Positions 24,173-49,108 of a stretch of DNA of 49,108 bases are shown here, piece after piece. The DNA lies in assembly GCA_021738245.1 (NCBI GenBank), contig JAIPCJ010000010.1:1-49108 (forward strand), given 5' to 3'. The notes below the pieces were generated by a model. It searched no databases. It saw only the letters and a list, made by a program, of their open reading frames with translations, and was not told where the DNA came from. Source of the DNA: Methylotenera sp. GTDB taxonomy: Bacteria > Pseudomonadota > Gammaproteobacteria > Burkholderiales > Burkholderiaceae_C. Each line of letters opens with the position of its first letter. Positions within the stretch are counted from its first letter, which is position 1. Both the position numbers and the translations under genes were made by a program.

Positions 24173-24198
24173 GGGGGCGTGGGCAGGCGTTGCGTGGT

Positions 24199-26955: not shown

Positions 26956-26970
26956 GTCGACAATGGGCGC

Positions 26971-33375: not shown

Positions 33376-33500
33376 GGCGGGGGCCCGCGCAGCGAACGGC
33401 GAGTGCGTGGGGCAGCAGATTTGCGGCCATTGTGCCCTCGGTGGATGCAGGGGCCCGGCATGCTGGCTACGATAGTTTTCCCTCAATGGAGCCCGACCCG

Positions 33501-34120: not shown

Positions 34121-35986
34121 ATGGACATGTCGACGCCCCCAGCCACTCCGCCTGCCAGTCGGGATGGCCTTGCCGTGGTCGAGCAGTGGCTTGCCCAGGC
34201 GCGCAGCGGCGAATGGCCCTTGCAGGAGCTCATGGCCGCCGCGTCCCAGCTGCAGGCTGCCGGTGCCCTGGACGCCGCCGCGCTGCTCTACCAGGCCTGG
34301 GTGGCAGCGACGTCGTCCCCGATGCGCCATGTCGCCTGCTTCAACTGGGGAGCGGTGCTGGGTGAGCTGCGTCGTCATGCGGATGCGGAGTCGGTGTACC
34401 GCATGGCGCTGTCGACCGCGCCGGGCTTTGCGCAGGCCCGCCTGAACCTGGGCCACCAGCTGGAGCACCTCGGCCGGATGGACGAAGCCCTGGCGGAATG
34501 GCGCACCGTCTATGACAACCCGGCGCCGGTCGGGCTGGGTGTGGAGCCGGTGAGCCTGCACCTGCATGCGCTGAACAACGCGGCCCGGCTGTTGGAGCAT
34601 CTGAAGCGTTACGACGAGTCAGAGGCCTTGATGCGCCGCTCGCTGACGCTGGATCCGCGCCAGAGCGACGTGGCCCAGCATTTCGTGCACATCCGCCAGA
34701 AGCAATGCGCCTGGCCCGTATACGACACCTTCGGTGAGGTCACGGAAAACCACCTGCTGATGAGCACCTCGCTGCTGGCCATGCTCGACGAGAGCGACGA
34801 CCCGGCCCTGCAGCTGCTCACGTCTCAGCGCTTCGTGCTGGAGCGGGTGCCCAAGGTCAAGGCGCCACCGCTGCACCGCGGGCGGCAGCGCCAGGGCAAG
34901 ATCCGCATCGGCTACCTGTCGGGTGACCTGCACATGCATGCGGTCGGGCTGTTGACGGCGGAGCTGTACGAGCTGCACGACCGCGCACGCTTCGAGGTGC
35001 ACGCCTTCAGCTGGAGCCGGGAAGACGGCACGCCGCTGCGGGCCCGGATCAAAGCGGCCATGGATCACTACCACCCGGTTCACCACCTGACCGACCTGCA
35101 GGTGGCCGAGGCCATCGCCGAGGCCGGCATCGACGTGCTGGTGGACCTGCAAGGCCTCACCAGCGGCGCGCGTGCGGGCATCCTGCCCCACCGGGGTGCG
35201 CCGGTGCAGGTGTCCTACCTGGGGCTGCCGGCCACGTCGGCCATCCCGGGTGTGGACTGGATCCTGGCCGATCGGTTCGTCATGCCGCCCGAGTCACTGC
35301 GCTTCTACACGGAAAAGCCGATCTACCTGCCGCATTGCTACCAGGTCAGCGACCGCCGGCGCGTGGCCAGCGCGCCGCCCACCCGGGCCGCAGCCGGCCT
35401 GCCGGAGAACGCGTTCGTCTTCTGTGCCTTCAACAACAACCACAAGATCAGCGAGCCGGTCTGGCGCTGCTGGATGCGCGTGCTGCGGCGAGTGCCGGGC
35501 AGCGTGCTCTGGCTGCTGGCCGACAACCCCTTCGCGCAGGCCAACCTCACCCGCGTCGCGGCCGAAGAGGGCGTGGCCCAGGAGCGGCTGGTGTTTGCCG
35601 GGCGAGCCCTGCCCGCGGACTACCTCGCGCGTTTCACGCTGGCCGACCTCTTCCTCGACACCTTCCCCTACAACGCCGGGACGACCGCCAGCGATTGCCT
35701 CTGGATGGGCACCCCCATCCTGACGCGCTCGGGCAAGACCTACATCTCCCGCATGGCCGGCAGCCTGCTGACGGCCGTGGGGCTGCCGGATCTGATCACC
35801 ACGTCGATTCAGGAGTACGAGGAACGGGCCGTGCAACTGGGCAATCAGCCTGCACGGGTCGCGTCGTACAAGCGCTACCTGGCTGAAAACGGGCGCGGCT
35901 CGCCGCTGTTCGACATCCCGGCCATCGTGCGCGACATGGAACGCGAGTTCGAGCGTCTGGCCCTCGAGGCCCGAGCCAAGCCCTAA
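34121..35986 (+). CDS. TPR-containing GT41 (O-GlcNAc transferase/HMW1C-like) protein glycosyltransferase
   Basis: The 621-residue protein has TPR-like repeats at about 30-200, then the two GT41 (SPINDLY/OGT) half-domains. GYLSGDLHMHAVG (residues 264-276, with the active-site-type His273), the LVDLQGLTSGARAGILPHRG segment, NNNHKISEP (Lys442) and PYNAGTTASDCLWMG (T521-T522) all match the family's UDP-sugar site. Family members attach GlcNAc or hexose to Ser/Thr or Asn of cytoplasmic proteins. It is the first gene of an operon with a type I secretion system, directly followed by the ABC transporter gene (zero gap). The exported Ser/Thr-rich repeat protein is the obvious candidate acceptor, by inference. 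ATG 34121 or 34127 may be the start. Confidence 0.87.
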   Translation: MDMSTPPATPPASRDGLAVVEQWLAQARSGEWPLQELMAAASQLQAAGALDAAALLYQAWVAATSSPMRHVACFNWGAVLGELRRHADAESVYRMALSTAPGFAQARLNLGHQLEHLGRMDEALAEWRTVYDNPAPVGLGVEPVSLHLHALNNAARLLEHLKRYDESEALMRRSLTLDPRQSDVAQHFVHIRQKQCAWPVYDTFGEVTENHLLMSTSLLAMLDESDDPALQLLTSQRFVLERVPKVKAPPLHRGRQRQGKIRIGYLSGDLHMHAVGLLTAELYELHDRARFEVHAFSWSREDGTPLRARIKAAMDHYHPVHHLTDLQVAEAIAEAGIDVLVDLQGLTSGARAGILPHRGAPVQVSYLGLPATSAIPGVDWILADRFVMPPESLRFYTEKPIYLPHCYQVSDRRRVASAPPTRAAAGLPENAFVFCAFNNNHKISEPVWRCWMRVLRRVPGSVLWLLADNPFAQANLTRVAAEEGVAQERLVFAGRALPADYLARFTLADLFLDTFPYNAGTTASDCLWMGTPILTRSGKTYISRMAGSLLTAVGLPDLITTSIQEYEERAVQLGNQPARVASYKRYLAENGRGSPLFDIPAIVRDMEREFERLALEARAKP

Positions 35987-38365
35987 ATGCCGCAGCGTCC
36001 TCACGACCCCTTCTTCGACGGCCAGCCGCAGGCCGTGGGCTTGCGGCTGGCCGCCAATGGCGAGCCACCGGAGCCGCCGGACCCGCTGGAGAACCTCACC
36101 AGCCAGCCTACGGCCGACCCTCTGCTGCAAGCGTTGTCCTGGCTCACGCGCCACCATGGCAAGCCGCGTTCGCCCGATTCCTTGCGGGCGGGCGTGCCGA
36201 TCGAGGGGCTGCTGACGCCGGACGGTGCGATCCGCGTGATGCGCGAGGCGGGCTACAACGCCGGGCTGTTGCGCAAGTCGATCGACGACATCCACGACCT
36301 GCTGCTGCCCGCGGTGCTGCTGCTGCATGGTGGCGACGCCTGCGTGCTGGTGCGCCGCCTGGATGACCCGGCGGCGGTGTCGCCAGGCACGTGCCGCTAC
36401 GAGGTGGTGTTCCCCGGGCCTGAGGCGGCGGCCGTGCCGGCCACCACGGCGGAACTCGAACCCGAGTACAGCGGTTTCATGCTCGCGGTGTCGCTGGTGC
36501 AGGCCACGCAATCGAGCCGCGGCGAGTCGCCGTTGCTGCAGATGCGGGGTCAGGGCCTGTCGTCGCACTGGCTGTGGGGCACCCTGAAGCGGTTCATTCC
36601 CTACTACCGCGCGTCCATGGTGGCGGCCTTGCTGTCCAACGTGCTGATGCTGGCCTCGGGGCTGGTCACCGCGGTCATCTACGACAAGGTGATCCCGCAC
36701 CAGGCAATGGTGACGCTGTGGACGCTGGCCATCGGCGCTGGCGTGGCCATGCTGTTCGACCTGTTCGCGCGGCAGCTGCGGTCTCACCTCATCGACCTGG
36801 CCGGACGCAAGGCTGACCTCGTCATCGGCGCCAAGCTGTACCGCCAGACGCTGGGCGTGCGCATGGAGCACAAGCCGGCCTCGGCGGGGTCGTATGCGCA
36901 CTATCTGGGCCAGGTGGAGATGGTGCGCGAGTTTTTTGCCGGCGCGACGTTGTCCGCCTTGTCGGACCTGCCTTTCCTCGTGATCTTCATCGGGATGACG
37001 TTCGTCATCGGCGGCCCGCTGGGCTGGGTGCTGGTGATCGCCGTGCCGATCATCATGGGCACGACCTGGGTCATGCAGGGGGCCATGCGCCGTGCCATGC
37101 GGGCCAATCTCCAGGAAACCGCGGACCTGCATGGCACCTTGGTCGAGTCGCTCGAGGGCCTGGAAGACCTCAAGACCTCCGGCGCGGAAGGCCGTTTCCT
37201 GCGCCGCTACGAGCACGCCACGGCCGTGGCTGCCGACACCGCGTTGACATCGCGTGCATTGACGTCATGGAGCATGAACCTCTCCAGCACGATGCAGCAG
37301 GCGGTCAACCTGATCATCCTGGTGTGGGGCGTCTATCTGATCCACGACGGGCAGATCACGTCGGGCGCGTTGATCGGTGCGGTGATGTTCGCCAGCCGCG
37401 CCACCGCGCCCCTGGGCAGCCTGATCAGCCTGGCAAACCGCTTTCAGGGGGCGCGGGCGGCGATGCTCTCCTTGAACCAGATGATGAATGCGCCGGTGGA
37501 GCGCGACAGCAGCCGCAGCTACGTGCCGCTGGACACCGTGACGGGCAAGGTCGGGCTGAATGACGTGGGCTTCTCGTACCCCGCCGCAGCCACCTCGCAT
37601 GCGCAGACCACGGGTGACGTGCCTGCGCCCAAGGTGCTGCGCAATGCCACGATGCGCCTGGAGGCCGGCGAAAGGGTGGCCATCCTCGGCCGCATCGGCA
37701 GCGGCAAATCGACCATCCTGCGGCTGCTGGGCGGCCTGTATCAACCCACCGAGGGCATGGTGGAGGTGGATGGCATCGACCTGCGTCAGGTCGACCCGGC
37801 CGAGTACCGCGCGCGTGTGGGTTTTGTCAGCCAGGAGCCCCGGCTGTTCCTGGGCACGCTGCGCGACAACGTGCTGATGGGCCGGGCGCATCTGGACGCC
37901 AGCAGTTTGGTGGAGGTCGCCAAGCTGACCGGCCTGGACCGTGTCATCGCCAGCCATCCCATGGGTTGGGACCTGCCGGTGGGCGAGATGGGGCAGCTGC
38001 TGTCGGGCGGGCAGCGCCAGCTCGTGGCGCTGGCGCGCGCGCTGGTGACCAAGCCGCAGATCCTGCTGATGGACGAGCCCACCAGCTCGATGGATGCCCA
38101 GAGCGAACTGGCCTTCCTGCGCCAGCTGCGCGATGCGGCGGGTACGGCCACGCTGGTGGTCGTGACGCACCGCCCGGCGGTGCTGGAGCTGGTGCGGCGG
38201 ATCATCGTCGTGGATGCGGGCCGCATCGTGATGGACGGCCCGCGTGACCAGGTGCTGGCGGCGTTGTCGGGCGTGCGCCCGACGCCGGCGGCTGGAGCCG
38301 CTGGCGGTGACGGCGTGCACATGCACCCCGCCGCCCAGCCCGTGCAGCGCAGCGCCAGCGTATGA
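35987..38365 (+). CDS. Type I secretion ABC transporter with degenerate C39 domain (LapB-like)
   Basis: The 792-residue protein begins with a C39-like domain (about 40-160) that lacks the catalytic cysteine, so it should bind but not cleave its substrate. The membrane domain spans about 190-460. The ATPase domain has Walker A GRIGSGKST (568-576), the signature LLSGGQRQLVALARAL and Walker B ILLMDEPTSSMD. This is the architecture of LapB/HlyB-like exporters. The ATG follows the GT41 TAA directly, and the stop overlaps the adaptor gene (ATGA), indicating one operon. The likely cargo is the repeat protein at 46826-49108. Confidence 0.93.
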   Translation: MPQRPHDPFFDGQPQAVGLRLAANGEPPEPPDPLENLTSQPTADPLLQALSWLTRHHGKPRSPDSLRAGVPIEGLLTPDGAIRVMREAGYNAGLLRKSIDDIHDLLLPAVLLLHGGDACVLVRRLDDPAAVSPGTCRYEVVFPGPEAAAVPATTAELEPEYSGFMLAVSLVQATQSSRGESPLLQMRGQGLSSHWLWGTLKRFIPYYRASMVAALLSNVLMLASGLVTAVIYDKVIPHQAMVTLWTLAIGAGVAMLFDLFARQLRSHLIDLAGRKADLVIGAKLYRQTLGVRMEHKPASAGSYAHYLGQVEMVREFFAGATLSALSDLPFLVIFIGMTFVIGGPLGWVLVIAVPIIMGTTWVMQGAMRRAMRANLQETADLHGTLVESLEGLEDLKTSGAEGRFLRRYEHATAVAADTALTSRALTSWSMNLSSTMQQAVNLIILVWGVYLIHDGQITSGALIGAVMFASRATAPLGSLISLANRFQGARAAMLSLNQMMNAPVERDSSRSYVPLDTVTGKVGLNDVGFSYPAAATSHAQTTGDVPAPKVLRNATMRLEAGERVAILGRIGSGKSTILRLLGGLYQPTEGMVEVDGIDLRQVDPAEYRARVGFVSQEPRLFLGTLRDNVLMGRAHLDASSLVEVAKLTGLDRVIASHPMGWDLPVGEMGQLLSGGQRQLVALARALVTKPQILLMDEPTSSMDAQSELAFLRQLRDAAGTATLVVVTHRPAVLELVRRIIVVDAGRIVMDGPRDQVLAALSGVRPTPAAGAAGGDGVHMHPAAQPVQRSASV

Positions 38366-39567
38366 GCAAGACACTGAGCCGGCAAGAAGGGCTTTTCGTC
38401 AGCGCCATCCATGCTGCCGAGATCGACGAGCCCATGCCCCGCGCCACCTGGGCGCTGTACCTGCTCTGCGCGGTGGTCGCGGCGGGCATCGTGTGGTCGT
38501 CGCTGGCGCATGTCGACGAAATCACCCGCAGCGATGGCCGCATCGTGCCCGATGGCCGTGAGCAGGTCATTGCCAGCCTGGATGCCGGCATCCTGCACGA
38601 GCTGAAGGTGAGGGAAGGGCAGGAGGTGCAGGCCGGCCAGGAACTGGTGACGCTGGACCCCACCCGCGCCGAGTCGCAGCAGGCCGAAGGGCAGGCGCGG
38701 CTGCTGGCGCTGAAGGCTGCCGCGGCGCGCGTGAACGCTGAAGCGAATGGGCGCGCCAGCATCCAGTGGCCGCCCGAGGTGGATGCGAACTCCCGCTACG
38801 CACAGGCGGAGGCCGAGTCTTTCGAGGCCCGCAAGCGCGTGCTGGATGAAGCCGTGGCGGCCATCAACCGCAGCTTGGGCATGATCAGCAAGGAACTCAA
38901 GCTGGCCCAGGACATGTCCCGCAGTGGCCTGATGAGCGATGTCGAGGTGATGCGCCTGAGCCGCCAGGTCAATGAAGTGCAGCAGCAGCGCGCCGAGCGG
39001 GTGGCGCGCTACCGCCAGGAAGCCAGCCAGGAGCTGGTGCGGGTGCAGAACGAAATGGCGCAGCTCAACGAGCAGATGGTGGTGCGGCAGGATGCGCTGA
39101 CGCGCACGGTGCTGCGCTCGCCGGTGCGCGGTGTGGTGAAGTCGATCAAGGCAGGCACCATCGGCGGCATCGTGGGCAGTGGCACACCCATCATGGAGAT
39201 TGCACCCATCGGCCCGCAAGTGCTGGTGGAAGCCCGGATCAAGCCCAAGGACATCGGCTTCGTGCGCCTGGGCCAGACGGCCGAGGTCAAACTCGCCGGC
39301 TATGACTTCAACGTGTACGGCGGGCTTGAAGGCAAGGTCACCTTCATCAGCCCCGATGCGGTGACCGAAGGGGACAAGAGCGCCGAGGGCGGGCATTACC
39401 GCGTCATCGTGAAATCCGAGCGCAACACGCTCAAGTTCAAGGGGCAGCCATTGCCCGTCATTCCCGGCATGACGGCTGTCATCGAGATCAAGACGGGCGA
39501 GCGCTCGGTGCTGAGCTACCTGCTGCGCCCGATGCTGAAGTCACAGGAAGCCCTGCGCGAGCGGTAA
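38362..39567 (+). CDS. HlyD/LapC-family periplasmic adaptor
   Basis: The 401-residue adaptor has one N-terminal membrane helix (about 30-52). Periplasmic lipoyl/barrel-sandwich halves flank a long coiled coil (about 105-235), followed by a beta-barrel domain with VLVEARIKPKDIGFVRLGQ. The C-terminal GMTAVIEIKTGERSVLSYLLRP is the usual HlyD-family end. It links the ABC transporter to the TolC-like channel in the type I secretion complex. Its start overlaps the ABC gene stop. Confidence 0.93.
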   Translation: MSKTLSRQEGLFVSAIHAAEIDEPMPRATWALYLLCAVVAAGIVWSSLAHVDEITRSDGRIVPDGREQVIASLDAGILHELKVREGQEVQAGQELVTLDPTRAESQQAEGQARLLALKAAAARVNAEANGRASIQWPPEVDANSRYAQAEAESFEARKRVLDEAVAAINRSLGMISKELKLAQDMSRSGLMSDVEVMRLSRQVNEVQQQRAERVARYRQEASQELVRVQNEMAQLNEQMVVRQDALTRTVLRSPVRGVVKSIKAGTIGGIVGSGTPIMEIAPIGPQVLVEARIKPKDIGFVRLGQTAEVKLAGYDFNVYGGLEGKVTFISPDAVTEGDKSAEGGHYRVIVKSERNTLKFKGQPLPVIPGMTAVIEIKTGERSVLSYLLRPMLKSQEALRER

Positions 39568-39570
39568 CTG

Positions 39571-39592
39571 CGGGCGCCTCGCCCTGTTTTTC
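39571..39592 (+). terminator. Weak terminator-like hairpin between adaptor and TolC-like genes
   Basis: GGGCG (39572-39576) and CGCCC (39580-39584) form a 5-bp stem with a 3-base loop, followed by TGTTTTT. The stem is short, so it may only attenuate transcription into the TolC-like gene. Confidence 0.35.
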
Positions 39593-39634
39593 AGCGCTTT
39601 GAGGGGGTGGCCTGCATGGTCTAGTGACAGGGCC

Positions 39635-41056
39635 ATGCTGTATCTCTCCCGCCTCTTCATCGCCCTCGGTCTTGCGGTCCTCGGACCGTTGGCCCTGGCC
39701 CAGTCGCGTCCTGCTCGCGCCGTGGCGACCCCGGCCGCGCCCGCTGCCGAGGCGCCGCCCTCGCAGGGGCGCTGCAACGAAGACGACGCAGGTCTGTCCC
39801 GGCTCGGGCGCGAGATGAGCGCGCTGGAGACCTCCGACGGCGATCCCCGCGCGGCACTCCAGGACTTGATCGACAAGACCCTGGCCCGCAGCAAGGCGGT
39901 CGGCGCGGTTCGTCTGCTGGCCGAGGCTGCGCGTGCTGACCTGGCTGAGGCCCAGGCCGCGAGCCTGCCCACGGCCAGCCTTGGCATTGGCGTCAACGCC
40001 CTGCGCCAGACCATTGGCGGCACGACCGTCGGGCGCGGCGGCCTGGTCTCGGCGACCTTGAGCGCCGGCATGCCGCTGTGGGACTTCGGTCGCATTGCGA
40101 AGCTGACCGAATGGCGCAAGGAACTGGCCGAGGTGGCCGCGCAGGGCCAGCGCAGCGCGGAGGAGCAACTGGCGCTCAGCACCGTGACGCTGGCGCTGGA
40201 CCGCAGCCGCTACGTGCTGCAAGCGCAGGTCTACACCCAGTACGTGCGCAAGATGGCCTGCCTGGTGGATGCCCTGGAGATCATCACCAAGGCCGACCGC
40301 GGTCGTGCCAGTGAAATGGTGCAAGCCCAGAAGAGCCTGCAGCAGGCAGACCTGTCGCTGGAGCAAACCATGTCGGCGCTGCGCCAGACCGAGGTGCGCA
40401 TGAAGCGCCTGGTGGGCGAGCCGCTGCCGCCCAGCATCGGCATGACGCCGTCCCTGTCGCTGCTGCCGGACCTGGAGCAGATGCAGAGCGACATCCTCCT
40501 GGCGCCGGATGTGGCGCAGGCCGAAGCGCAGGCCCGCTCGCAGCGCAGCTTGGCCGAGTCGGTCATTGCCGGCCAGAAGCCGAGCATCAGCGTGACCGGC
40601 AGTGCGGGAGCACAGTTTCGCTCGGGCAACAACCTGGGCAGCGACAGCCGCTCCACCGACATTGGCGCGGGGGTGTCCATCACCATTCCCATCCTGCAAC
40701 CAGGCGCGGAGGCCCAGGCCAAGGCTGCGGTACAGCGCTATCGCGCCACCGTGCTGCAGCGCGATGAAACCATTGAAGCCAAGCGCTACCGGCTGCTGGA
40801 GATGCACGAGGTGGGAACGTCAACGCTGGATCGGGCGCGCCGCATCATCGAGATTCTGCGCAACAGCGACCGGGTGCGCGCCTTCACGCTGCAGCAATGG
40901 CAGCAATTGGGGCGCCGCTCGCTGTTCGACGTGATGGCCGCGGAGGGCGACTACTATTCCATGCGAGTTGCCCACGTGAATGCGATGTTTGACGCTCAGC
41001 AGATCGTTGCCATGATCTGGAGCATGGGACGCGGTGTGGCGACGCCGCTGCGATGA
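39635..41056 (+). CDS. TolC-family outer membrane channel of the type I system
   Basis: The 473-residue protein starts with a Sec signal (about 5-23). It shows two outer membrane efflux protein halves with the typical long helices and beta regions (for example SATLSAGMPLWDFGRIAKL and GAGVSITIPILQPGAEAQAK). TolC/LapE-like proteins form the trimeric channel through which the adaptor delivers substrate. The stop overlaps the next gene's ATG. I chose the ATG at 39635 because the signal peptide begins there. Confidence 0.9.
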   Translation: MLYLSRLFIALGLAVLGPLALAQSRPARAVATPAAPAAEAPPSQGRCNEDDAGLSRLGREMSALETSDGDPRAALQDLIDKTLARSKAVGAVRLLAEAARADLAEAQAASLPTASLGIGVNALRQTIGGTTVGRGGLVSATLSAGMPLWDFGRIAKLTEWRKELAEVAAQGQRSAEEQLALSTVTLALDRSRYVLQAQVYTQYVRKMACLVDALEIITKADRGRASEMVQAQKSLQQADLSLEQTMSALRQTEVRMKRLVGEPLPPSIGMTPSLSLLPDLEQMQSDILLAPDVAQAEAQARSQRSLAESVIAGQKPSISVTGSAGAQFRSGNNLGSDSRSTDIGAGVSITIPILQPGAEAQAKAAVQRYRATVLQRDETIEAKRYRLLEMHEVGTSTLDRARRIIEILRNSDRVRAFTLQQWQQLGRRSLFDVMAAEGDYYSMRVAHVNAMFDAQQIVAMIWSMGRGVATPLR

Positions 41057-43440
41057 GAAAAACCATGACGAACACCCCACCCATCCTGATCATCAGCTTC
41101 AACAATCACGAATTTGTTGGCAACACGATTTCTCAGTTGCACCGGTTGGGCATTGATGACGCAAGCATCATCGTCATCGACAACGCGAGCAACTGGGATG
41201 AGAGCCAGGCGTTTCTTGAGACACTGAAATGCCGGGTGATTCGAAATGCAGAGAATTTCGGGCACCTGTGCTGGGCGCGACCCGAGATCTACAGCACCTT
41301 GCCGGACAAGTTCTGTGTGACGGATCCGGACCTGCAGTTCAATCCGAATCTCCCCAAGAACTTCATCGAGGTGATGTCGGAGTTGGCTGACCGTTTCCAG
41401 GCGAGCAAAGTGGGTTTTGCGCTGGACATCGCCGACGGCGACCTGATGTTTCAGTACCCGGACTATCACCTCGGGCAAAGCATCCTCGAGTGGGAAAGCC
41501 AGTTCTGGAAACAGCGGGTGCCGGGAGAATCCCTGGAGGTGTACCTTGCCGAGGTGGACACGACGTTTCACGTGTTCAACAAGCACGGTTTCCATCGGCG
41601 CCAGTTGCGGGTGGCCGGAGACTACACGGCCAAGCATCTGCCCTGGTACCGGACGAATCCAGTGATTCCGCCCGAGCGCATGACGATGGTCTACCGCCAT
41701 GCGACGCGGGTGTCCACCATCGCGCGTTTTCACATGCGCCAGCACGAAGGTTTGCGGGATGTCGAATTGCCGGTGGCCGATCCGGCCGCCGCTGCCGCCT
41801 CCCGGCGCGTGACCGGCCCGGCCTCTGCCGTGCACCTCTACCAGATTGCCTATTCCGAAGAGACCTTTGCCGCGGTCGAGCCCGGCTACCAGGTGCTCGA
41901 CAACCGCGCCAACGAGCGGCCGGATTGGTATGAGTATTGGCCCATTCGGCGCTTCTTGCTCGAGCAGGCGCTGGACGAGCGCGCGTTCTATGGTTTTTTC
42001 TCGCCCAAATTCGGCAAGAAGACCCAGCTGAATCACGCGCAGGTGTCAGAGTTTGTCAGGCAGGCGTCCGCGGATCATGACGTGGTCCTGTTTTCGCCGC
42101 AGCCCGATATGGCGGCATTCTTCTTGAATGTTTTCGAGCAGGGCGAGTTGTTTGACCCGGGCTTTATTGCGGCCACTGAAGGCTTCTTGCGCAAGATCGG
42201 CAATGAAGTGAATGTGCGCAATCTGGTGATGGATTCATCACAGATCGTGTTCTCCAATTACTTCGTGGCGCGGCCGGCGTTCTGGCGGCGTTGGCTGGAG
42301 ATCGCGGAGCAGTTGTTTGCGCTGTGCGAAGGGCCGGATTCCCCTGAGAAGACCGCCTGCACGATGCCCACCACCTACCCCGGCCAGGCGCAACGCAAGG
42401 TGTTCATGCAGGAGCGTCTGGCGTCCTTCGTGCTGGCGACCGAGCCGCAGTGGCGCGCCAAGGCGGCCGACCCCTTCGGCTTTGCCTGGTCCATGACCCG
42501 GTTCCGCGAGTATCCGACGCAGGCCTACATCAGCGATGCCTTGAAGCTGGCCTACCGGACGCAGCGGTTTCCTGAGTACCTCGATGCCTATGCGAAGACG
42601 CGTGAACAATTCGCGAAGGCCTCGAGCGGTGCCCCCGAGGCCCAGGCATCAGCGAACGCGACCGCTCATCGCGTGCTGCCGTCGGTGGAGGCCCTGCATC
42701 GCAGCAAGGCCGGCAAGGCCAGCAATAAATGGGCGTCCTACCTGACGTATTACGATCAGCTTTTCGCGCCACTGCGGCATTCGCCGGTTCGGATGCTGGA
42801 GATCGGCGTCCAGAACGGGGGCTCTCTGGAAACCTGGTCGCAGTACTTTGCCCAGGGGCAGTTGTTTGTCGGCTGCGACATCGATCCGAAGTGCGGCCTG
42901 CTGCGGTATGACGACAAGCGCATCAATATCGTGGTCGGCGATGCCAATGCGGCCGAGACGTACGAGAAGATTGCTGCGTATACGCCGCAGTTTGACATTG
43001 TCATTGATGATGGTTCACACCGGTCCAATGACATCATCAACTCCTTCCTGAGGTATTTTCCCCACGTCAGTCCTGGGGGCTTGTATGTGATCGAAGACAC
43101 CCACTGCCTCTATTGGAATATTTACGGCGGTGGCGTGTTGAACGATTACGGTGCCTATGCGTTCTTCAAGCGTCTGGTGGATGTCCTGGGCTTCGAGTTC
43201 TGGAAGGACGACTTGAGCATCAATGCGTATCTGCGTACCTTCTTTGACCAGCGAGCCACGCCGGGCTTCATTCTCGATGGCTGGATTGACGGCATCGAGT
43301 TCAAGAATTCGGTGATCACCATCAGGAAGGCGCTGCAACCAGGTCATGAAAAGCTGGGTGAGCAGATCTTGTCGGGCACTGAGCATCAAGTCCATCTTTT
43401 CGGACCTGCCCCTTCCCAGCCGGCTGCGGTGCGCCCATGA
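41053..43440 (+). CDS. Multidomain glycosyltransferase-methyltransferase
   Basis: The 795-residue protein has at least three parts. Residues 1-250 look like a GT2-like GT-A domain, opening PPILIISFNNHEFVGNTISQL with an acidic DPDLQF near 95. Residues 265-530 form a middle region I do not recognise, with QVLDNRANERPDWYEYWPIR. Residues 560-760 are a class I SAM methyltransferase of the MycE/TylF-like group, with MLEIGVQNGGSLETW, FDIVIDDGSHRS and YVIEDTH. It would add and methylate a sugar of a glycan on the exported protein. The codons are visibly more A/T-rich than upstream genes, which hints at acquisition by transfer. ATG 41053 overlaps the TolC-like stop; ATG 41065 is an alternative start. 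Confidence 0.75.
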   Translation: MRKTMTNTPPILIISFNNHEFVGNTISQLHRLGIDDASIIVIDNASNWDESQAFLETLKCRVIRNAENFGHLCWARPEIYSTLPDKFCVTDPDLQFNPNLPKNFIEVMSELADRFQASKVGFALDIADGDLMFQYPDYHLGQSILEWESQFWKQRVPGESLEVYLAEVDTTFHVFNKHGFHRRQLRVAGDYTAKHLPWYRTNPVIPPERMTMVYRHATRVSTIARFHMRQHEGLRDVELPVADPAAAAASRRVTGPASAVHLYQIAYSEETFAAVEPGYQVLDNRANERPDWYEYWPIRRFLLEQALDERAFYGFFSPKFGKKTQLNHAQVSEFVRQASADHDVVLFSPQPDMAAFFLNVFEQGELFDPGFIAATEGFLRKIGNEVNVRNLVMDSSQIVFSNYFVARPAFWRRWLEIAEQLFALCEGPDSPEKTACTMPTTYPGQAQRKVFMQERLASFVLATEPQWRAKAADPFGFAWSMTRFREYPTQAYISDALKLAYRTQRFPEYLDAYAKTREQFAKASSGAPEAQASANATAHRVLPSVEALHRSKAGKASNKWASYLTYYDQLFAPLRHSPVRMLEIGVQNGGSLETWSQYFAQGQLFVGCDIDPKCGLLRYDDKRINIVVGDANAAETYEKIAAYTPQFDIVIDDGSHRSNDIINSFLRYFPHVSPGGLYVIEDTHCLYWNIYGGGVLNDYGAYAFFKRLVDVLGFEFWKDDLSINAYLRTFFDQRATPGFILDGWIDGIEFKNSVITIRKALQPGHEKLGEQILSGTEHQVHLFGPAPSQPAAVRP

Positions 43441-43465
43441 CGGGTTGCGGCTGGGCTGACCACGC

Positions 43466-44215
43466 ATGAGCAAAAGCGCTGTCGTCTTCGCTGGTTATTT
43501 TCCGACGCCGTTTTCCTTGGCGGTGGGCGAGGAGTTCATTGCCTACTTCAGGCAGCATTACGCCGACTGTCATTTCTATGTTGGCTTGAATCCGGCCGCG
43601 TGCAATCAGGATTTCCTTCAGCTGCTGGCAGCGTCCGGGCTTCAGTACGAGGTGCGCATCGTGCCCGAATCACTGGTGGTCGACAGCGACGCAAGCGCGT
43701 ACCAGGCTGCGCTGTTACTGCTGCGTGAGGGGGAGCGTCAGGATTTTGATGTCCTCTATTTCTTTCATTCGAAGGGCGCCACCAATCCAACGTCCAAGCA
43801 GCTGCGTGAGTTCTTTCTTCCCCGTTTTGCGGATCGTGCACGCATTGAGGCCGCTTTCAGTCACGAGACGGTCGGCTCGTACTCGCTGTTTTTGGGTAAG
43901 TCGAAGAATCCATTCATTGACCAGTTGGGCGAACACTACGTCTTTGACAGGCCCTACTTTTATACCTACCTGTACTTCCACACCATCTATGCGCTGCGGG
44001 CGCGGCCGGTGCTGGATTTCGTGCATGGCTGTCAGCGCTCGTTTTTCGACGTGAAGCTGGTCGACCGCTACTTCTTCGAACGGGATTTTCCGCATGTGGT
44101 GTGGCGGCAAGGCTTCGTGCCCGCGTCGGAATTTCTCGTCGACTGGAATATGTGTTTTCCAGCCAGTGAAGTGGACTTTTCAGGGGATGCCCGGGCCCAC
44201 CTGAGCCACCGTTGA
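43466..44215 (+). CDS. Unrecognised protein of the glycan cluster
   Basis: I do not recognise this 249-residue protein. It starts VVFAGYFPTPFSLAVGEEF and contains FFHSKGATNPTSKQLREFF, a motif like those in some uncharacterised glycosyltransferases, and many aromatic residues in its second half. No signal peptide or membrane segment is seen. It follows the multidomain transferase gene by 25 bases on the same strand and shares its lower GC content. A sugar-transferring enzyme or an acceptor-binding protein is possible. It is the last plus-strand gene of the cluster. Confidence 0.65.
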   Translation: MSKSAVVFAGYFPTPFSLAVGEEFIAYFRQHYADCHFYVGLNPAACNQDFLQLLAASGLQYEVRIVPESLVVDSDASAYQAALLLLREGERQDFDVLYFFHSKGATNPTSKQLREFFLPRFADRARIEAAFSHETVGSYSLFLGKSKNPFIDQLGEHYVFDRPYFYTYLYFHTIYALRARPVLDFVHGCQRSFFDVKLVDRYFFERDFPHVVWRQGFVPASEFLVDWNMCFPASEVDFSGDARAHLSHR

Positions 44216-44327
44216 GGGGCCCGATCCCGGCCCGGCGTTTTGGCGCGTCCACGGTTCGGTGCCGCCCCAGGCCCCCGAAGAACGTCCTTGACCGCCGTTC
44301 CTGCGCGCGGCGGCGAGCGACATGGCG

Positions 44328-44990
44328 TCAGGCGCCGTACTCCACGTGCTTGTTCTCGATGTCGGAGAAAGAGGGCCGCTGAATCACGGTGCGCTTGCTC
44401 AGGATGTACCACCCGCCTTCGCGCTGCAGATCTTTCCAGATCATGTCGGCGGCGTAGTTGTGAAACATCAGGGGCCAATGCTGCGGGGCGAGCGCGGGCA
44501 ACAGTTCACGCAGGCGCTCGGCGCCCAGCAGGAACTTCGGGATCAACTTGAGCGCAGCCGCACGCGTGACGACATAGGCCGAGGTAGTCTGGGACGTGAT
44601 CACCTTGTGGAATGCGGGGTTGTCGGTGACTACCGACAGCACGGCATTGCCAGACAACAGCAAGGCGTCCCACGCGCTGCGGGCGGCCATGAAGGCGCGG
44701 GCATCGCTGGCGACTTCTGCGAGGCTTCGCACGAAGCGGAAGTCGTCTTCCAGCACCAGGCAATGCGGTGCCTGCGTTTCCGTCAGGAAGCGCATCAGCA
44801 CATTGGCGTGCGACAGCGCGCAGCCCACGCTGCCGTGCACCGCGGAACGGTAGGCACTGAATCGCTGAAGCTGGCCGGGGTCTGTGCCCAGTTGGCGCAG
44901 CTCTTCCTGGCACTCCGCCCACCGGTCCTGGCGCTCGTCCAGGTTGATGACGTACACGGGGCCGAACAGATCGTGAAGGGAGGTGTCCAT
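44328..44990 (-). CDS. GT25 family glycosyltransferase
   Basis: The 220-residue protein is GT25-like (LPS galactosyltransferase/LgtB-type). It has GPVYVINLDERQDRW at the front (about 10-24), GCALSHANVLMRFL (the SH-x-x-x box) and the acidic LVLEDDFRFV near 80. Members usually add galactose or glucose to an oligosaccharide. It follows the GT11-fusion gene by 8 bases on the minus strand, so both probably belong to one transcript. It could extend the sugar placed by the GT41 enzyme. Confidence 0.85.
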   Translation of the reverse strand: MDTSLHDLFGPVYVINLDERQDRWAECQEELRQLGTDPGQLQRFSAYRSAVHGSVGCALSHANVLMRFLTETQAPHCLVLEDDFRFVRSLAEVASDARAFMAARSAWDALLLSGNAVLSVVTDNPAFHKVITSQTTSAYVVTRAAALKLIPKFLLGAERLRELLPALAPQHWPLMFHNYAADMIWKDLQREGGWYILSKRTVIQRPSFSDIENKHVEYGA

Positions 44991-44998
44991 GAGGGCGC

Positions 44999-46570
44999 TC
45001 AGAGGGGCTTCTTGAACAGGAAGCAACCGCAGCCATAGCGCTGCGCGTCGGCGACCTGCAGGGGGACGTTCTCGCGGAAGTTGCCCTGGTCGTCGACGAG
45101 CGAAAACTCCAGCAACTGCAGGCCGTCGAAGTCCGCCACGATGTCCCGTGCCCGGAAGACGCGGTGGGCATTGAACACGACGGTCGGCTGGCCGACGGGC
45201 ACGACGAAATACAGCAGACCGCCGGGTGCCAACACGCGCGACAGCTCGCGCATCGCGATGGCGGCTCCGTGGAAGTTGATGGGGTCGCCATAGCGGCCCA
45301 GGCCGATGTGTTCGACGACATGCATGCACGACAACGAGGCGATGGACCCGTCCGGCATGTCCAGGTTCAGCAGATCGGCGCGACCGCACTCGAGGTTGGC
45401 GAGCTGAATGGCCGCGGGGCGGTAGTCGAGAAACCGCAGCGGCTGGAATGCCGAAGCCAGCGTGATGAAGCGGATATCGCTGCTGATGTCCGTGTGCAGC
45501 GCCACCGGGTTGGCGAACAGCCGGCGTGCCGCCCAAGCGGTGTGATAGACGTAGTGGGTGTCGAAATCGGTCCCGGCCGTCGCATCGCCCAGGCAGGGGC
45601 GCAATTGCACCTGCCAATCGGGCGGCAGCTGGCCCTGCGAGAAGAAGGTCTCCCGGTCGATGCGGAACTGCTCCTGCTCCAGCGCGTTGGCAAAGCGTGG
45701 CGCGAGGTTGGTGCGGTCGACGGCGCCGGCGATGCGCTTCCACCGGGGCGGGCACAGCTGCGCGGAGGGTTGGTGAATCTGCGACCAGGGGTCGGGCCAC
45801 ACCACATCGTCGCTGCCCGACAGCATCGCACCCCACCAGGAGTAGGTGGAGTTCGAGATGACATGGCGGCTGCATTGGGCCATCACGTACAGGTCTGCCA
45901 GGTCGTCGCCCGTGTTGACGATCTGTGCCCGGATGCCTGCCTGGCTGAGGAATGCCGCGGTGTAGTTGGGTTCGTCCGAGAAGACGAAGATGTCCAGGCC
46001 GCCGGCTCGGGCTGACAGCCAGCGCAGTGAATCGATGTAGTAGGCCTCGCTGGCAAGGCCGTGGTGCTTGTAGTCGTGTCGGCGCACATGGACTGACGTC
46101 GGGCGCGCCGTGCTGCGAACGCGTTCGGCGAGTTGCTGCACCGCCGGTGGCATGGCGCCCTCAAGCCGATGCCGCAGCTCGGTGAGCGCCTCAGGCGAAA
46201 CGACCCGGCGGTCCTGCCAGTAGCCGTCCAGCACCACGTGACGAACCTCTGCCGGGATCGAGAACCGCTCGGGAATGTCGCCGTCGGCCGGCCAGGCCAT
46301 GTCGGCCTCACGCAGGAGCCGGGCGCTGTCCGCAGGGACCGCGTCAACCGTGGCCGCCTCGGGCCAGAGCCTGTGAAGCACGCTGCGCCGACCGAAGCCA
46401 TCACGTGCGAAAGCGGTGGTGTCGAAGGCCAGCTGTGCGCCGTTGGCCTGCGCGACGCGCTGCGCATACAGCATCTGGAACAGCTGGTTGCCGATGCCGC
46501 CCTGCAGGCGCTGCACAACGGTGAGGTCGGTCGTGGTGGGAGTGGTTGGCGTGGCTTCTGAGAGGTCCAT
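44999..46570 (-). CDS. GT11 fucosyltransferase fused to DUF268 methyltransferase
   Basis: The 523-residue protein joins two enzymes. The N-terminal half (about 17-290) is an alpha-1,2-fucosyltransferase-like GT11 domain, with GGIGNQLFQML at 24-34, HVRRHDY near 165 (the GDP-fucose binding pattern) and NSTYSWWGAMLSG near 250. The C-terminal part (about 340-520) is DUF268-like with a class I methyltransferase look (SLSCMHVVEHIGLGRYGDPI, ELSRVLAPGGLLYFVVPVG). One protein would thus transfer fucose and perhaps methylate it. The start is the ATG at 46570 with GGAAG upstream. It is separated from the repeat protein gene by a strong terminator. Confidence 0.83.
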   Translation of the reverse strand: MDLSEATPTTPTTTDLTVVQRLQGGIGNQLFQMLYAQRVAQANGAQLAFDTTAFARDGFGRRSVLHRLWPEAATVDAVPADSARLLREADMAWPADGDIPERFSIPAEVRHVVLDGYWQDRRVVSPEALTELRHRLEGAMPPAVQQLAERVRSTARPTSVHVRRHDYKHHGLASEAYYIDSLRWLSARAGGLDIFVFSDEPNYTAAFLSQAGIRAQIVNTGDDLADLYVMAQCSRHVISNSTYSWWGAMLSGSDDVVWPDPWSQIHQPSAQLCPPRWKRIAGAVDRTNLAPRFANALEQEQFRIDRETFFSQGQLPPDWQVQLRPCLGDATAGTDFDTHYVYHTAWAARRLFANPVALHTDISSDIRFITLASAFQPLRFLDYRPAAIQLANLECGRADLLNLDMPDGSIASLSCMHVVEHIGLGRYGDPINFHGAAIAMRELSRVLAPGGLLYFVVPVGQPTVVFNAHRVFRARDIVADFDGLQLLEFSLVDDQGNFRENVPLQVADAQRYGCGCFLFKKPL

Positions 46571-46747
46571 GCAGCTTCCTTCGATGCGCGGTGTCAAGCA
46601 GCGGCAAGCGATGAGGCTGTGCCGGCGCCGTGGGTGACCTGCTTGACGTGCATGGCCAGATTGTGGGGGCGCGCAGCCTGCCCCCGGCCCCCGGATCAGT
46701 GCGGTCAAACCCGCCCAGTTCGGCACTGAGCGCAGCCGCCGGGTCTG

Positions 46748-46788
46748 AAAAAACTGCAGGCCCGACAGCTTGCGCTGCGGGCCTGCAG
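46748..46788 (-). terminator. Rho-independent terminator of the repeat-protein gene
   Basis: CTGCAGGCCCG (46754-46764) and CGGGCCTGCAG (46778-46788) form a perfect 11-bp stem, extended by CAGC/GCTG inside the 13-base loop region. On the minus strand it is followed by TTTTTT (complement of 46748-46753). It ends transcription 38 bases after the repeat-protein stop. The rest of 46571-46825 holds only a 6-bp GC hairpin and the upstream region of the fucosyltransferase gene. Confidence 0.88.
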
Positions 46789-46825
46789 GGGCGGGGCATC
46801 GCGCCGGGTCAGCGCGAGTTCAGCG

Positions 46826-49108
46826 TCAGATCCATGGCGTTCCGCTGTTGCGGCGCTGCTCCTCTTCCTCGGCGAGCTTGCGGTCAAGTGCCGCGAGGTG
46901 GGCGTCGGGCTGATCCGGCGGCGGCGTGTGCGCCGGCTCGGCGGGCGCGGCAGCAGCCAGCACAGGCGTGGTCGGTGCCGCGAGCACATCGCCCAGACTG
47001 ACGGGCGTTGTCTGCGCATGCTCCGGCTGCTGCGGCTGCACGTCCTTGGCGAACCACACGTCTCCCAGTTGATGGGTCTTGCCGTCCGCCGTGGTGAAGC
47101 TGGACATCAGGCCCACCACGTTGCCGTTCGTCAGCTCGTGCGTCTTGGCAGCCGTCAGGCCGAGTTCCACGATGCCCAGTTCCGCCAGCGTCTTCATCTC
47201 GCCCGCGTCGGTCTTGCCGTCGTGGTTGGCATCGACCCAGACGCGCAGATCCTTGAAGTGCGCGTCGGCCGCGTTGATCTTGCCGTCGTGGTTGACGTCC
47301 AGGCTGGCCAGCGCCTCGAAGCCGTTGGTGGCTCGCTTGCCGTTGGCCATGATGAAGCCCGACCCGAACAGTTCGGCGCCGCTGTTGATGCTGCCGTCTC
47401 CATTGCGGTCGATCGCCAGCAGGCCGTCACCGCCGCCGACCCAACCCCACTGGTGCGTCTTGCCGTTGCCGTTGAGGTCGAAGTTCACCCCATGGGCCGC
47501 ATTGAGGGTCTCGATGCCGTTGCCGTTGAGGTCCAGCACCAGGGGTGTCGAGGACGTCAGGGCTTCGAACTGGGCCGTGCTCATCGCCTGGATCTGGTCC
47601 GAGGTCAGTGCCAGCGACTGGGTCATGTTCATCGCGGCCAGGTCACGGGTCTCGAAGGCCTGGATCTGGTCCGTGGTGAACGCCTGGATGTGATCCGTCG
47701 TCAGCCCGGCGATGGCTGCCGTGGAGAGGGCCGCGATGTCGCGCGTCTCGATGGCGCGGATCTGGTCGGTCGACAGCCCCCCCAGCTGGGTGGAAGTCAG
47801 CGCCGCGAAGTGGTGCGTCTCCAGCGCCTGGATGCCGTCGGTGCTGAGGGCATGCAACTGGCTGGTCGTCAGCACATGCAGCTGCGCCGTGGTCAGGGCC
47901 TGGATGTCGGCCGTGTCCAGCGTCGACAGCTGGCTGGTGGTCAGCGCCCCCAGCTGGGTCGTCGTCAGCGCACGGATCTGGCCCGCGTCGAAGGCGTTGA
48001 GGTCATCGCTGACCAGTCCGGCGATCTGGCTGGTCGTCAGCGCCGCCACCTGGGTGGTGCTGAAGCCCAGGATCTGGTCCGAATCCAGCGCTTCCAGCTG
48101 GGCCGTGCTCAGGGCGCGCAGCGCCGTGGTGCTCAGCGCTCGCAGGTCAGCGCTTTCGATGGCCTGCATCTGCGTCGTGGTGAACCCGGCGATTTGCACC
48201 GAGCTCAGCGCCGCGAACTGTGTCGTCGACAGGGCCGCGACGCCGTCCGTGCTCAGGGCGCCCAGTTGCACCGAACTCAGCGCGGCGATCTGGCCGGTGG
48301 CCAGCGCTGCCACGTCCGCCGTTTCCAGCGTGGAGACTTGCGAGGTCGTGAGTGCCGCGATCTGCGAGGTCATCAGGGCGCGGAACTGGCTGGTCGTCAG
48401 TGCGTTCAGGTCGTCACTCACCAGGCCGGCAATCTGGCCGGTGGTCAGGGCCGCGACCTGGCCGGTGCTCAAGGCGCCGATCTGGTCGGAGCCCAGGGCT
48501 TCGAGCTGGGCGGTACTCAGCGCACGCAGGGCGGTGGAGCTCAAGGCGCGCAGGTCACCGCTCTCGATGGCTTGCATCTGCGTCGTGCTCAGGCCGGCCA
48601 CTTGCACCGAATTCAGCGCCGCCACCTGGCCACTGCTCAGGGCCACGATGCCATCGGTGCTCAGGGCGCCGAGTTGCGCCGAGTTCAGCGCAGCGATCTG
48701 GTGGGTGCCGAGCGCGGCCACATCCGCGGTCTCCAGGGTGGAGATCTGAGAGGTGGTCAGTGCGGCGATCTGCGAGGTCACCAGTGCGCGGATCTGCGTG
48801 CTGGTCAGTGCGTTCAGGTCGTCACTCACCAGGCCGGCGATCTGGCCCGTGGTCAGCGCCGCGACCTGAGCGGTGCTCAAGGCGCCGATCTGGTCGGAGC
48901 CCAGGGCTTCGAGCTGGGCCGTACTCAGCGCACGCAGGGCGGTAGTGCTCAAGGCACGCAGGTCACCGCTCTCGATCGCCTGCATCTGCGTCGTGCTCAG
49001 GCCTGCGACCTGCACCGAGTTCAGCGCGGCCACCTGGCCACTGCTCAAGGCCACGATGCCGTCGGTGCTCAGGGCGCCGAGTTGGGCGGAGTTCAGCGCG
49101 GCGATCTG
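46826..49108 (-). CDS. Octapeptide-repeat protein with C-terminal EF-hand-like calcium module, C-terminal 760 residues
   Basis: The gene is open to the right edge, so only the C-terminal 760 residues are present. The first 520 are octapeptide repeats of the type A-L-x-S/T-x-Q-I/L/V-x. Then comes a calcium-binding module seen in many large type I secreted proteins: DLNGNGIETL, DLNGNGKTHQWG, DRNGDGSINSGAELFG, DVNHDGKINAAD and DANHDGKTDAGE. The end is an Ala/Pro linker and a charged helix finishing SGTPWI. No GGxGxDxLx RTX nonapeptides are seen. It is most likely the cargo of the nearby type I system; the C-terminal end would hold the secretion signal. Confidence 0.82.
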   Translation of the reverse strand, partial: QIAALNSAQLGALSTDGIVALSSGQVAALNSVQVAGLSTTQMQAIESGDLRALSTTALRALSTAQLEALGSDQIGALSTAQVAALTTGQIAGLVSDDLNALTSTQIRALVTSQIAALTTSQISTLETADVAALGTHQIAALNSAQLGALSTDGIVALSSGQVAALNSVQVAGLSTTQMQAIESGDLRALSSTALRALSTAQLEALGSDQIGALSTGQVAALTTGQIAGLVSDDLNALTTSQFRALMTSQIAALTTSQVSTLETADVAALATGQIAALSSVQLGALSTDGVAALSTTQFAALSSVQIAGFTTTQMQAIESADLRALSTTALRALSTAQLEALDSDQILGFSTTQVAALTTSQIAGLVSDDLNAFDAGQIRALTTTQLGALTTSQLSTLDTADIQALTTAQLHVLTTSQLHALSTDGIQALETHHFAALTSTQLGGLSTDQIRAIETRDIAALSTAAIAGLTTDHIQAFTTDQIQAFETRDLAAMNMTQSLALTSDQIQAMSTAQFEALTSSTPLVLDLNGNGIETLNAAHGVNFDLNGNGKTHQWGWVGGGDGLLAIDRNGDGSINSGAELFGSGFIMANGKRATNGFEALASLDVNHDGKINAADAHFKDLRVWVDANHDGKTDAGEMKTLAELGIVELGLTAAKTHELTNGNVVGLMSSFTTADGKTHQLGDVWFAKDVQPQQPEHAQTTPVSLGDVLAAPTTPVLAAAAPAEPAHTPPPDQPDAHLAALDRKLAEEEEQRRNSGTPWI
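47549..49108 (-). repeat. 24-bp (octapeptide) coding repeats in a 408-bp higher-order array
   Basis: 65 octapeptides (1560 bases) run without interruption. They are organised in units of 17 octapeptides (136 residues, 408 bases): 49051-48644, 48643-48236, 48235-47828 and a partial unit 47827-47549. By hand count the first two share 123 of 136 residues and the second and third 97 of 136; the last is more diverged. Consensus is [AG]-[LIF]-x-[ST]-x-[QD]-[ILVF]-x. The array continues past the edge. Confidence 0.92.

What the first reader, a model, noticed from the sequence alone, without database searches (positions are those of the whole stretch)
34121..49108. Dedicated secretion-plus-glycosylation system for an octapeptide-repeat surface protein
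Within 15 kb lie a TPR/GT41 protein glycosyltransferase, a complete type I secretion trio, four sugar-modifying genes (a GT2-like/methyltransferase, GT25, GT11-DUF268 and an unrecognised protein) and a Ser/Thr-rich repeat protein with a calcium module. The GT41 gene is translationally adjacent to the exporter gene. GT41 enzymes act on unfolded cytoplasmic proteins, and type I exporters take unfolded cargo, so priming glycosylation before export is a consistent model. GT25 and GT11 could then extend the sugar with galactose-like and fucose units, capped by methyl groups. I know GT41 enzymes paired with two-partner secretion or autotransporters (HMW1C); pairing with a LapBCE-type exporter and this repeat type is, as far as I can tell, not a standard described system.
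Basis: partly seen in the sequence, partly recalled or inferred. Interest (0 to 1): 0.85.

Follow-up and report, generated by a model that had tools for sequence, protein, structure and literature searches.

The report
Sugar-coating and export of giant proteins
In a Roseateles-like bacterium, a gene cluster joins an enzyme related to the human O-GlcNAc transferase, a one-step export pump and a giant repeat protein, and similar groupings recur in distant bacteria, so the enzyme probably puts sugars on the repeats before export; the sugars themselves have not been seen.

Summary
A TPR/OGT-type GT41 enzyme, a type I exporter (LssB-type ABC, HlyD adaptor, outer-membrane factor), four sugar-type or unassigned genes and a Pfam ALTTAQ repeat protein lie in 15 kb; the contig ends inside the repeat gene. 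Of 150 family genomes, 25 carry a near-full-length GT41 orthologue; 25 of 25 also carry ALTTAQ repeats, against 14 of the other 125. The exporter gene follows GT41 directly in 80 of 80 named loci. Outside the family a GT41 lies near an ALTTAQ gene at 13 of 34 examined loci, in five families and different gene orders. The repeat is predicted to be an alpha-solenoid with one short helix per octapeptide. Position 4 of the octad is Ser/Thr in 92% of 5747 octads in the family, but 3-28% in three of four measured genomes without GT41 (67% in the fourth, 21 octads). A prospective test of this site half failed. The calcium module is a FrpC-type self-processing fold without the Asp of its Asp-Pro site. 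The sugar genes vary among relatives, so the GT25/GT11 steps are not shown. Most likely a dedicated system that glycosylates before export; no glycan has been observed.

The parts
34121..35986 (+). TPR + GT41 (OGT-type) protein glycosyltransferase, candidate priming enzyme (frame open from GTG 34025)
   Evidence: PF13844 1.1e-74 and TPR; best solved relatives human OGT and XcOGT; 24-sequence orthologue alignment with invariant H273 and K442 at the positions of the OGT/XcOGT His and Lys (catalytic roles recalled)
35987..38365 (+). type I secretion ABC permease/ATPase, LssB subfamily
   Evidence: TIGR03375 761 bits over cut-off 693; follows GT41 directly in 80 of 80 named loci
38362..39567 (+). 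HlyD-type membrane fusion protein
   Evidence: TIGR01843 316 bits over cut-off 209; found in 78 of 80 named loci; the other two are contigs of 3.9 and 5.2 kb
39599..41056 (+). outer-membrane efflux protein (OEP), TolC-like
   Evidence: PF02321 4.5e-21; TIGR01844 below cut-off
41053..43440 (+). GT2-like / Methyltransf_24 protein with an unannotated middle domain; accessory gene, not part of the conserved core
   Evidence: PF00535 1.8e-8 and PF13578 1.5e-6; residues about 255-525 match separate stretches in some relatives
43466..44215 (+). unrecognised 249-aa protein
   Evidence: no Pfam or NCBIfam match; model of low confidence, pLDDT 46
44328..44990 (-). GT25-type glycosyltransferase
   Evidence: PF01755 3e-7 within the open frame; homologue beside the cluster seen only in G034 (= L128), 42%
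44999..46570 (-). GT11 + DUF268/methyltransferase protein
   Evidence: PF01531 1.2e-11, PF03269 2.5e-12; homologues in G034 (62%) and, partial, G036 (35%)
47546..49108 (-). ALTTAQ octapeptide repeats (64 octads in the window), 5' end cut by the contig end
   Evidence: PF20080 9.3e-152; 8-residue alpha-solenoid model, pLDDT mostly around 90; position 4 Ser/Thr in 97%
47042..47545 (-). FrpC-type self-processing-module (SPM) fold, Thr-Pro instead of Asp-Pro at its start
46826..47041 (-). C-terminal tail, acidic then ...GTPWI; 17 of 27 tails in relatives end in PLI; candidate type I secretion signal
   Evidence: tails printed; signal role inferred

Best explanation
A dedicated glycosylate-then-export system for a giant repeat protein. 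The cytoplasmic TPR-GT41 enzyme recognises the unfolded ALTTAQ chain and puts a sugar on Ser/Thr residues, probably the Ser/Thr at position 4 of each octad. Enzymes encoded between exporter and repeat gene make or add further sugars and differ from strain to strain. The LssB-type exporter, HlyD adaptor and outer-membrane factor then move the chain out in one step; it has no evident N-terminal signal peptide. Outside, calcium folds the SPM-like C-terminal domain and the repeats fold into a long alpha-solenoid carrying sugars along its length: a mucin-like surface or released glycoprotein. Shown: gene content, conservation, recurrence in other families, family assignments, exceptional Ser/Thr at position 4. 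Predicted: the fold. Inferred: that GT41 acts on the repeat, the acceptor position, that glycosylation precedes export, where the product ends up.
For: GT41 orthologue implies ALTTAQ in 25 of 25 family genomes, 14 of 125 without it (Fisher 8e-19, not corrected for kinship); 50 of 50 named genomes, chosen from 80 loci and overlapping the family sample. ABC follows GT41 in 80 of 80 loci, approximate gap median 8 bases. Exporter orthologue: ALTTAQ in 28 of 29 against 11 of 121. Where the GT41 is a distant one (37-39%), it still lies within about 8 kb of the exporter orthologue in G046, G067 and G139. Outside the family a GT41 lies within about 6 kb of ALTTAQ at 13 of 34 examined loci in five families; at seven of the 13 ABC and HlyD genes are seen too; gene orders differ. 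Position 4 Ser/Thr 92.4% of 5747 octads with 2.6% D+E+N+P, position 3 64%; three of four measured GT41-free genomes 3-28%. In G741 the GT41-linked copy has 95%, the unlinked one 32%. Over 36 loci, those with a nearby GT41 have higher position 4 (p 0.006 by locus, 0.0013 by genus), position 3 no difference. Sugar genes fill the exporter-repeat interval and are not among the 25 top families on the other side of GT41.
Against: No glycan, donor or linkage was observed. Prospective test of position 4: 4 of 4 GT41-linked loci were high as predicted (78-99%), but of 12 loci without a GT41 in view only one was under 40%; ten were 76-96% and one 51%. All ten come from one genus with several ALTTAQ copies, one of them GT41-linked in G922 and G926; action in trans could explain this but is untested. 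G543 has a GT41 next to an ALTTAQ gene with only 35%. G024 has no GT41 and 67% (21 octads). L186, in the family, has 39% (23 octads). 21 of 34 examined loci outside the family have no GT41 in view; G582, G391, G394, G467 and G712 have ALTTAQ and no GT41 in the genome. In G133 and G149 the listed repeat matches lie 430 and 70 kb from GT41. Position 4 is the predicted helix start, so Ser/Thr could be structural. Kinship inflates all counts.
Confidence: 0.68

Rival explanations
1. GT41 modifies another protein (for example flagellin or another surface protein), and the exporter-repeat pair is only a long-standing neighbour in a surface-structure region.
For: TPR glycosyltransferases of this kind modify flagellin in Caulobacter (FlmG, passages of PMC7591256). 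Two flagellin genes appear among 127 upstream genes of 16 loci. Many genomes carry further GT41 genes.
Against: The pairing recurs in five other families in different gene orders; 25 of 25 and 50 of 50 co-occurrence; the exporter gene follows GT41 in 80 of 80 loci.
Confidence: 0.15
2. Ser/Thr at positions 3 and 4 are structural: they start and cap the short helices of the solenoid. The repeat is exported without sugar, and the sugar genes serve lipopolysaccharide or capsule.
For: The model starts a helix at position 4 in most octads, so position 3 is the expected helix cap with Gln at position 6 as partner. Position 3 Ser/Thr is alike with and without nearby GT41 (p 0.20). Ten of 12 new loci without a GT41 in view keep high position-4 Ser/Thr.
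Against: Capping does not explain position 4, where Asp/Asn/Glu/Pro together are 2.6% and where Ala/Pro dominate in G582 and G391. It does not explain the GT41-exporter-repeat linkage.
Confidence: 0.22
3. The locus is a surface-polysaccharide island and the genes travel together without a functional link.
For: Genes between exporter and repeat are rich in hexapeptide transferases, FdtA, DegT aminotransferases, epimerases and methyltransferases.
Against: The sugar genes vary while GT41, exporter and repeat stay, the opposite of an island moving as a block.
Confidence: 0.08

Closest known systems
HMW1A/HMW1B/HMW1C of Haemophilus influenzae (GT41 with two-partner secretion)
   Same: cytoplasmic GT41 enzyme in the locus of a large exported glycoprotein (listing and abstract starts of PMC3012730 and PMC3983070; rest recalled)
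   Different: HMW1C modifies Asn (abstract start) and lacks TPR (recalled); the enzyme here is OGT-type and matches HMW1C-like chains only at 4e-7; export is type I; the cargo is an ALTTAQ solenoid
FlmG and flagellins of Caulobacter crescentus
   Same: soluble TPR + GT-B enzyme that O-glycosylates a dedicated exported protein, presumably in the cytoplasm, with the TPR domain binding it (passages of PMC7591256)
   Different: flagellar export and pseudaminic acid; no type I secretion in the main text by word search
Serine-rich repeat proteins with dedicated glycosylation and accessory Sec export in Gram-positive bacteria (recalled; a reference title on them seen in PMC12645811)
   Same: giant Ser-rich repeat protein, constant priming enzyme, variable further transferases, dedicated exporter (recalled)
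   Different: unrelated exporter and enzymes; accessory Sec genes were not searched for here
SwmA of Synechococcus WH8102
   Same: listed as a glycosylated S-layer-type protein (table row and reference of PMC2943079); type I export with nearby glycosyltransferases is recalled
   Different: no OGT-type GT41 or ALTTAQ repeats are known to me there; not compared
FrpC self-processing module of Neisseria meningitidis (PDB 6sjw, 6sjx)
   Different: Thr-Pro or Ser-Pro in place of the Asp-Pro that is cleaved; the FrpC passages (PMC7078468) tie cleavage to that Asp

Membership tests
GT41, OGT-like branch | GT41 catalytic domain over the curated cut-off, preceded by TPR | tested here: met
   PF13844 252 bits against 25; TPR_2 39.8 bits against 27
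GT41, OGT-like branch | closer to OGT than to HMW1C; active-site His and Lys kept | tested here: met
   OGT 5.8e-111, XcOGT 8.6e-102, HMW1C-like 4e-7; H273 and K442 invariant in 24 sequences; role of these residues recalled
GT41, OGT-like branch | transfers a sugar to Ser/Thr of protein | not testable with these tools
   needs an enzyme assay
Type I secretion system, LssB subfamily | ABC permease/ATPase over the subfamily cut-off | tested here: met
   TIGR03375 761 against 693.1 bits
Type I secretion system, LssB subfamily | HlyD adaptor and outer-membrane factor adjacent | tested here: met
   TIGR01843 over cut-off; PF02321 over cut-off; TIGR01844 under cut-off
LapA/LapBCE adhesin system | cargo with N-terminal retention module, LapD/LapG control | tested here: inconclusive
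   window gene lacks its 5' end; full-length relatives mostly start MAS... directly into repeats, by eye; LapD/LapG not searched
Pfam ALTTAQ repeat (PF20080) | repeat score over cut-off | tested here: met
   493 bits against 26.4, 18 stretches
FrpC self-processing module | SPM fold | tested here: met
FrpC self-processing module | Asp-Pro cleavage site at the start of the module | tested here: not met
   Thr-Pro in the window; T 18, S 9, D 0 of 27 copies matched by the script, three genes counted twice; one copy in G139, not in that script, reads Asp-Pro
HMW1 two-partner secretion glycosylation system | HMW1C-like enzyme with TpsB exporter | tested here: not met
   enzyme is OGT-like; adjacent exporter is type I

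The most novel reading that the evidence does not exclude
A widespread branch of bacterial OGT-like GT41 enzymes are dedicated glycosylators of ALTTAQ proteins: giant, almost wholly repetitive alpha-solenoids that take a sugar at position 4 of each octad before type I export, giving a mucin-like glycoprotein fibre with hundreds of evenly spaced glycans. This would be a natural substrate class for bacterial OGT relatives and a new type of glycoprotein secretion system.
Probability: 0.45. Interest if true: 0.87.

Novelty: new variant of a known kind. Interest (0 to 1): 0.72.

Why it matters
[quoted passage not shown] This locus names a concrete, testable substrate (the ALTTAQ repeat), a candidate acceptor position in each octad and a matching exporter. 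If right, bacteria use an OGT-type enzyme as a dedicated glycosylator for giant type I cargo, parallel to HMW1C, FlmG and serine-rich repeat systems, and the regular repeat could be a scaffold for evenly spaced protein-bound sugars.

Tried and rejected

One search found 133 interval genes; five that crossed a join were dropped and the GT25 gene was added by hand (129). 80 used 127 of the 158 upstream genes (16 of 21 loci). Searches (28 proteins or fragments; 27 copies) hold three genes twice (L129/G144, L131/G013, L139/G021); one search holds one twice (L131/G013). Octad counts left out ORFs under 12-15 octads, and outside the family those with Gln at position 6 under 30%. The 34 loci outside the family leave out G302 C1 and G314 C323, whose flanks were not read, and include three seen from one side only (G302 C2, G302 C92, G263 C40), G239 by coordinates and G712 by absence of GT41 from its genome. 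Left out: G139's second copy (79%), G766's short ORF (64%) and loci of unclear linkage (G302 C1 66, G314 64 and 67, G084 100, G028 99, G127 97); G923:C1 entered as 90 for its two ORFs (84, 96).

Full report
WHAT IS THERE. The window is one whole contig of a draft genome of 4.64 Mb. On the plus strand a tight run starts with a TPR-GT41 enzyme (34121-35986), followed with no spacer by a type I ABC exporter (35987-38365), a HlyD adaptor overlapping it by four bases, an outer-membrane factor, a GT2/methyltransferase protein and an unrecognised protein. On the minus strand lie the repeat gene (46826-49108, cut by the contig end), a GT11-DUF268 gene and a GT25 gene. NCBIfam places the exporter in the LssB subfamily and the adaptor in the type I HlyD subfamily, both over cut-off; the outer-membrane protein is under the TolC model's cut-off.

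THE ENZYME. A profile of 24 orthologues finds human OGT at 5.8e-111, Xanthomonas OGT at 8.6e-102, SPINDLY at 1.9e-74 and HMW1C-like enzymes only at 4e-7. It is therefore an OGT-type GT41. The His and Lys that line up with XcOGT are invariant in the 24 sequences; their catalytic role is recalled, apart from the lysine called catalytic in the passages of PMC4683255. The donor sugar cannot be told from sequence.

In 150 genomes of the family (141 genera), ALTTAQ occurs in 39. A search with this GT41 splits in two: 25 genomes with a near-full-length match at 57-81% identity or self (E at or below 1.3e-200; three of them, G056, G138 and G143, with one stop inside), then a drop to 43% and less; G101 has only fragments (56% and 72%). 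All 25 have ALTTAQ; of the other 125, 14 do, G101 among them (Fisher 8e-19). The exporter also splits: 29 genomes at 56-100%, next 45%; 28 of the 29 have ALTTAQ (G043 lacks it: 80% complete, 700 contigs), against 11 of 121 (Fisher 2e-20). A scan of genome contigs found 327 relatives, of which the best 80 were kept. In 80 of 80 the ABC gene follows the GT41 directly; 78 have the adaptor, the other two being contigs of 3.9 and 5.2 kb. Of 50 of these genomes searched whole, 50 have ALTTAQ over cut-off; 30 were not searched, and at least 13 of the 50 are also in the family sample. Across the phylum ALTTAQ is found in only 28 of 398 genomes. These counts are not corrected for kinship.

SYNTENY. In 18 of the 25 orthologue genomes GT41 and the repeat gene lie in one fetched stretch or pair of adjoining stretches (window for G000). 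In 16 of these the repeat gene is downstream and convergent; in G056 and G138 it is on the same strand. In G133 and G149 the listed repeat matches are 430 and 70 kb away, and in five drafts they are on other contigs. From GT41 to the repeat gene it is 9.6-32 kb, measured in 17 of these 18 (not G138) and in G046. The interval differs: 129 genes from 18 genomes (17 orthologue genomes and G046) are rich in hexapeptide transferases (14), FdtA (9), DegT aminotransferases (8), GT2 (8), epimerases (7) and methyltransferases (7). The 25 top families (of 100) among 127 genes upstream of GT41 in 16 loci include none of these. So the constant core is GT41, exporter and repeat, and the sugar genes are variable. 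The window's GT11, GT25 and part of its GT2-MT gene recur together only in G034.

RECURRENCE OUTSIDE THE FAMILY. I read the flanks of 34 ALTTAQ loci in other families (three from one side only, two by coordinates or absence of GT41). A GT41 lies within about 6 kb at 13: G563, G543 (C2), G302 (C92), G243, G232, G239, G741 (C3), G829, G766 (3733 kb), G922 (C7), G926 (C4), G933 and G911, in five families. At seven of them (G563, G243, G232, G741, G829, G933, G911) ABC and HlyD genes are there too. Gene orders differ: ALT-GT41 then the exporter on the other strand (G563); two GT41, exporter, ALT (G741, G829); ALT-GT41-ALT (G766). Not linked: 21 loci, among them G582, G391 and G712 with no GT41 in the genome, G622, one copy each in G741, G543 and G766, and 12 of the 16 loci. 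G394 and G467 also have ALTTAQ and no GT41; G087, G451, G254, G329 and G385, with one or a few weak ALTTAQ matches, have no GT41 either. In the phylum sample 19 of 28 ALTTAQ genomes have GT41 against 114 of 370 others (p 1e-4); 16 of the 19 are one family.

THE ACCEPTOR SITE. Octads were put in register using positions 1, 2, 6 and 7 only. In 28 proteins or fragments of the family (5747 octads, three genes read twice) position 3 is Ser/Thr in 64% and position 4 in 92.4%, with D+E+N+P 2.6% at position 4. In the model the helix mostly begins at position 4, so position 3 is the expected cap and position 4 the first helical residue. By protein, 24 of 25 have 68% or more at position 4; L186 has 39% on 23 octads. 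Elsewhere: G582 25%, G391 3% (31 octads), G712 28% (18 octads), all without GT41; G024 without GT41 67% (21 octads); linked copies 64-100% except G543 C2 at 35%; unlinked copies G543 C1 22%, G622 28%, G741 C1 32%, but G766 4045 kb 66%; G741 linked 95%. I then wrote down a prediction and tested 16 new loci from nine genomes. The four GT41-linked loci were 78-99% as predicted. Of 12 without a GT41 in view, only one was under 40% (G935, 32%), one was 51% (G894) and ten were 76-96%: this half failed. All ten belong to one genus whose genomes G922 and G926 also carry a GT41-linked copy, so action in trans is possible but untested; one of the ten (G923:C1) is at a contig end. Over 36 loci the difference remains (p 0.006 by locus, 0.0013 by genus; position 3 p 0.20), but position 4 is a suggestive, not a clean, marker.

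MECHANISM. Most likely GT41 primes the unfolded repeat in the cytoplasm, variable enzymes add or supply further sugars, and the type I system exports the chain. Sugar before export follows from known type I export of unfolded cargo and from FlmG, which by its authors' reasoning acts on flagellin in the cytoplasm (passages of PMC7591256); it is not shown here. Whether the product stays on the surface or is released is open.

WHAT IS KNOWN. PMC12645811, a 2025 review of bacterial O-glycosylation, has no GT41, OGT or type I secretion in its main text by a word search. No title or abstract start that I saw in the searches (three of them showing only the first rows of long lists) pairs OGT-type GT41 with type I export or names ALTTAQ. 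That is absence from what I saw of this open-licence library only. The concept is known in other forms (HMW1C, FlmG, serine-rich repeat proteins), so I rate it a new variant of a known kind.

Noticed in passing
G302:C92:27095-35212 and similar in G263, G282, G286, G314, G326, G342: Very long frames (2279-3781 codons) with several GT41 catalytic matches in a row, in family f47 genomes that also carry ALTTAQ genes; a poly-GT41 frame next to ALTTAQ in G302.
   Followed up: partly
window 41815-42627 (residues about 255-525 of the GT2/Methyltransf_24 protein): Unannotated domain of about 270 residues that recurs without the flanking domains near the cluster in relatives (46-64% identity in L079 (= L128), L083 (= L139), L095, L122, L124, L157); the L079 copy has no Pfam match at E 10.
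   Followed up: no
L084 14060-17920, L105 9460-12276, L106 (joined G062 coordinates 23287-26988): A second, shorter ALTTAQ gene (938-1286 aa) next to the giant one, with a different, partly hydrophobic N-terminus and lower position-4 Ser/Thr (68-74%).
   Followed up: partly
G766:C1:3721431-3740443: Two ALTTAQ genes with a GT41 gene between them, all on one strand.
   Followed up: no
L100 14450-17551: In G056 the GT41 orthologue is split over two matches with a stop inside, and a second GT41 (47% identity) lies directly upstream.
   Followed up: no
intervals of relatives, alignment A3: Intervals between exporter and repeat gene hold FdtA, DegT and hexapeptide transferase families, which by recall suggests dTDP-3-acetamido-3,6-dideoxyhexose sugars in relatives; none of the nine cluster proteins of the window matched these families.
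   Followed up: no
G000:C95:156-1196 and G000:C155:11067-12110: Two further GT41 genes in the same genome, 47% and 38% identical to this one over the matched part; the genome's ALTTAQ matches are all on the window contig.
   Followed up: no
window 33432-34010: A DUF1993 gene directly upstream of GT41 is kept in the nearest relatives, further off or not found in the fetched flank in others.
   Followed up: no
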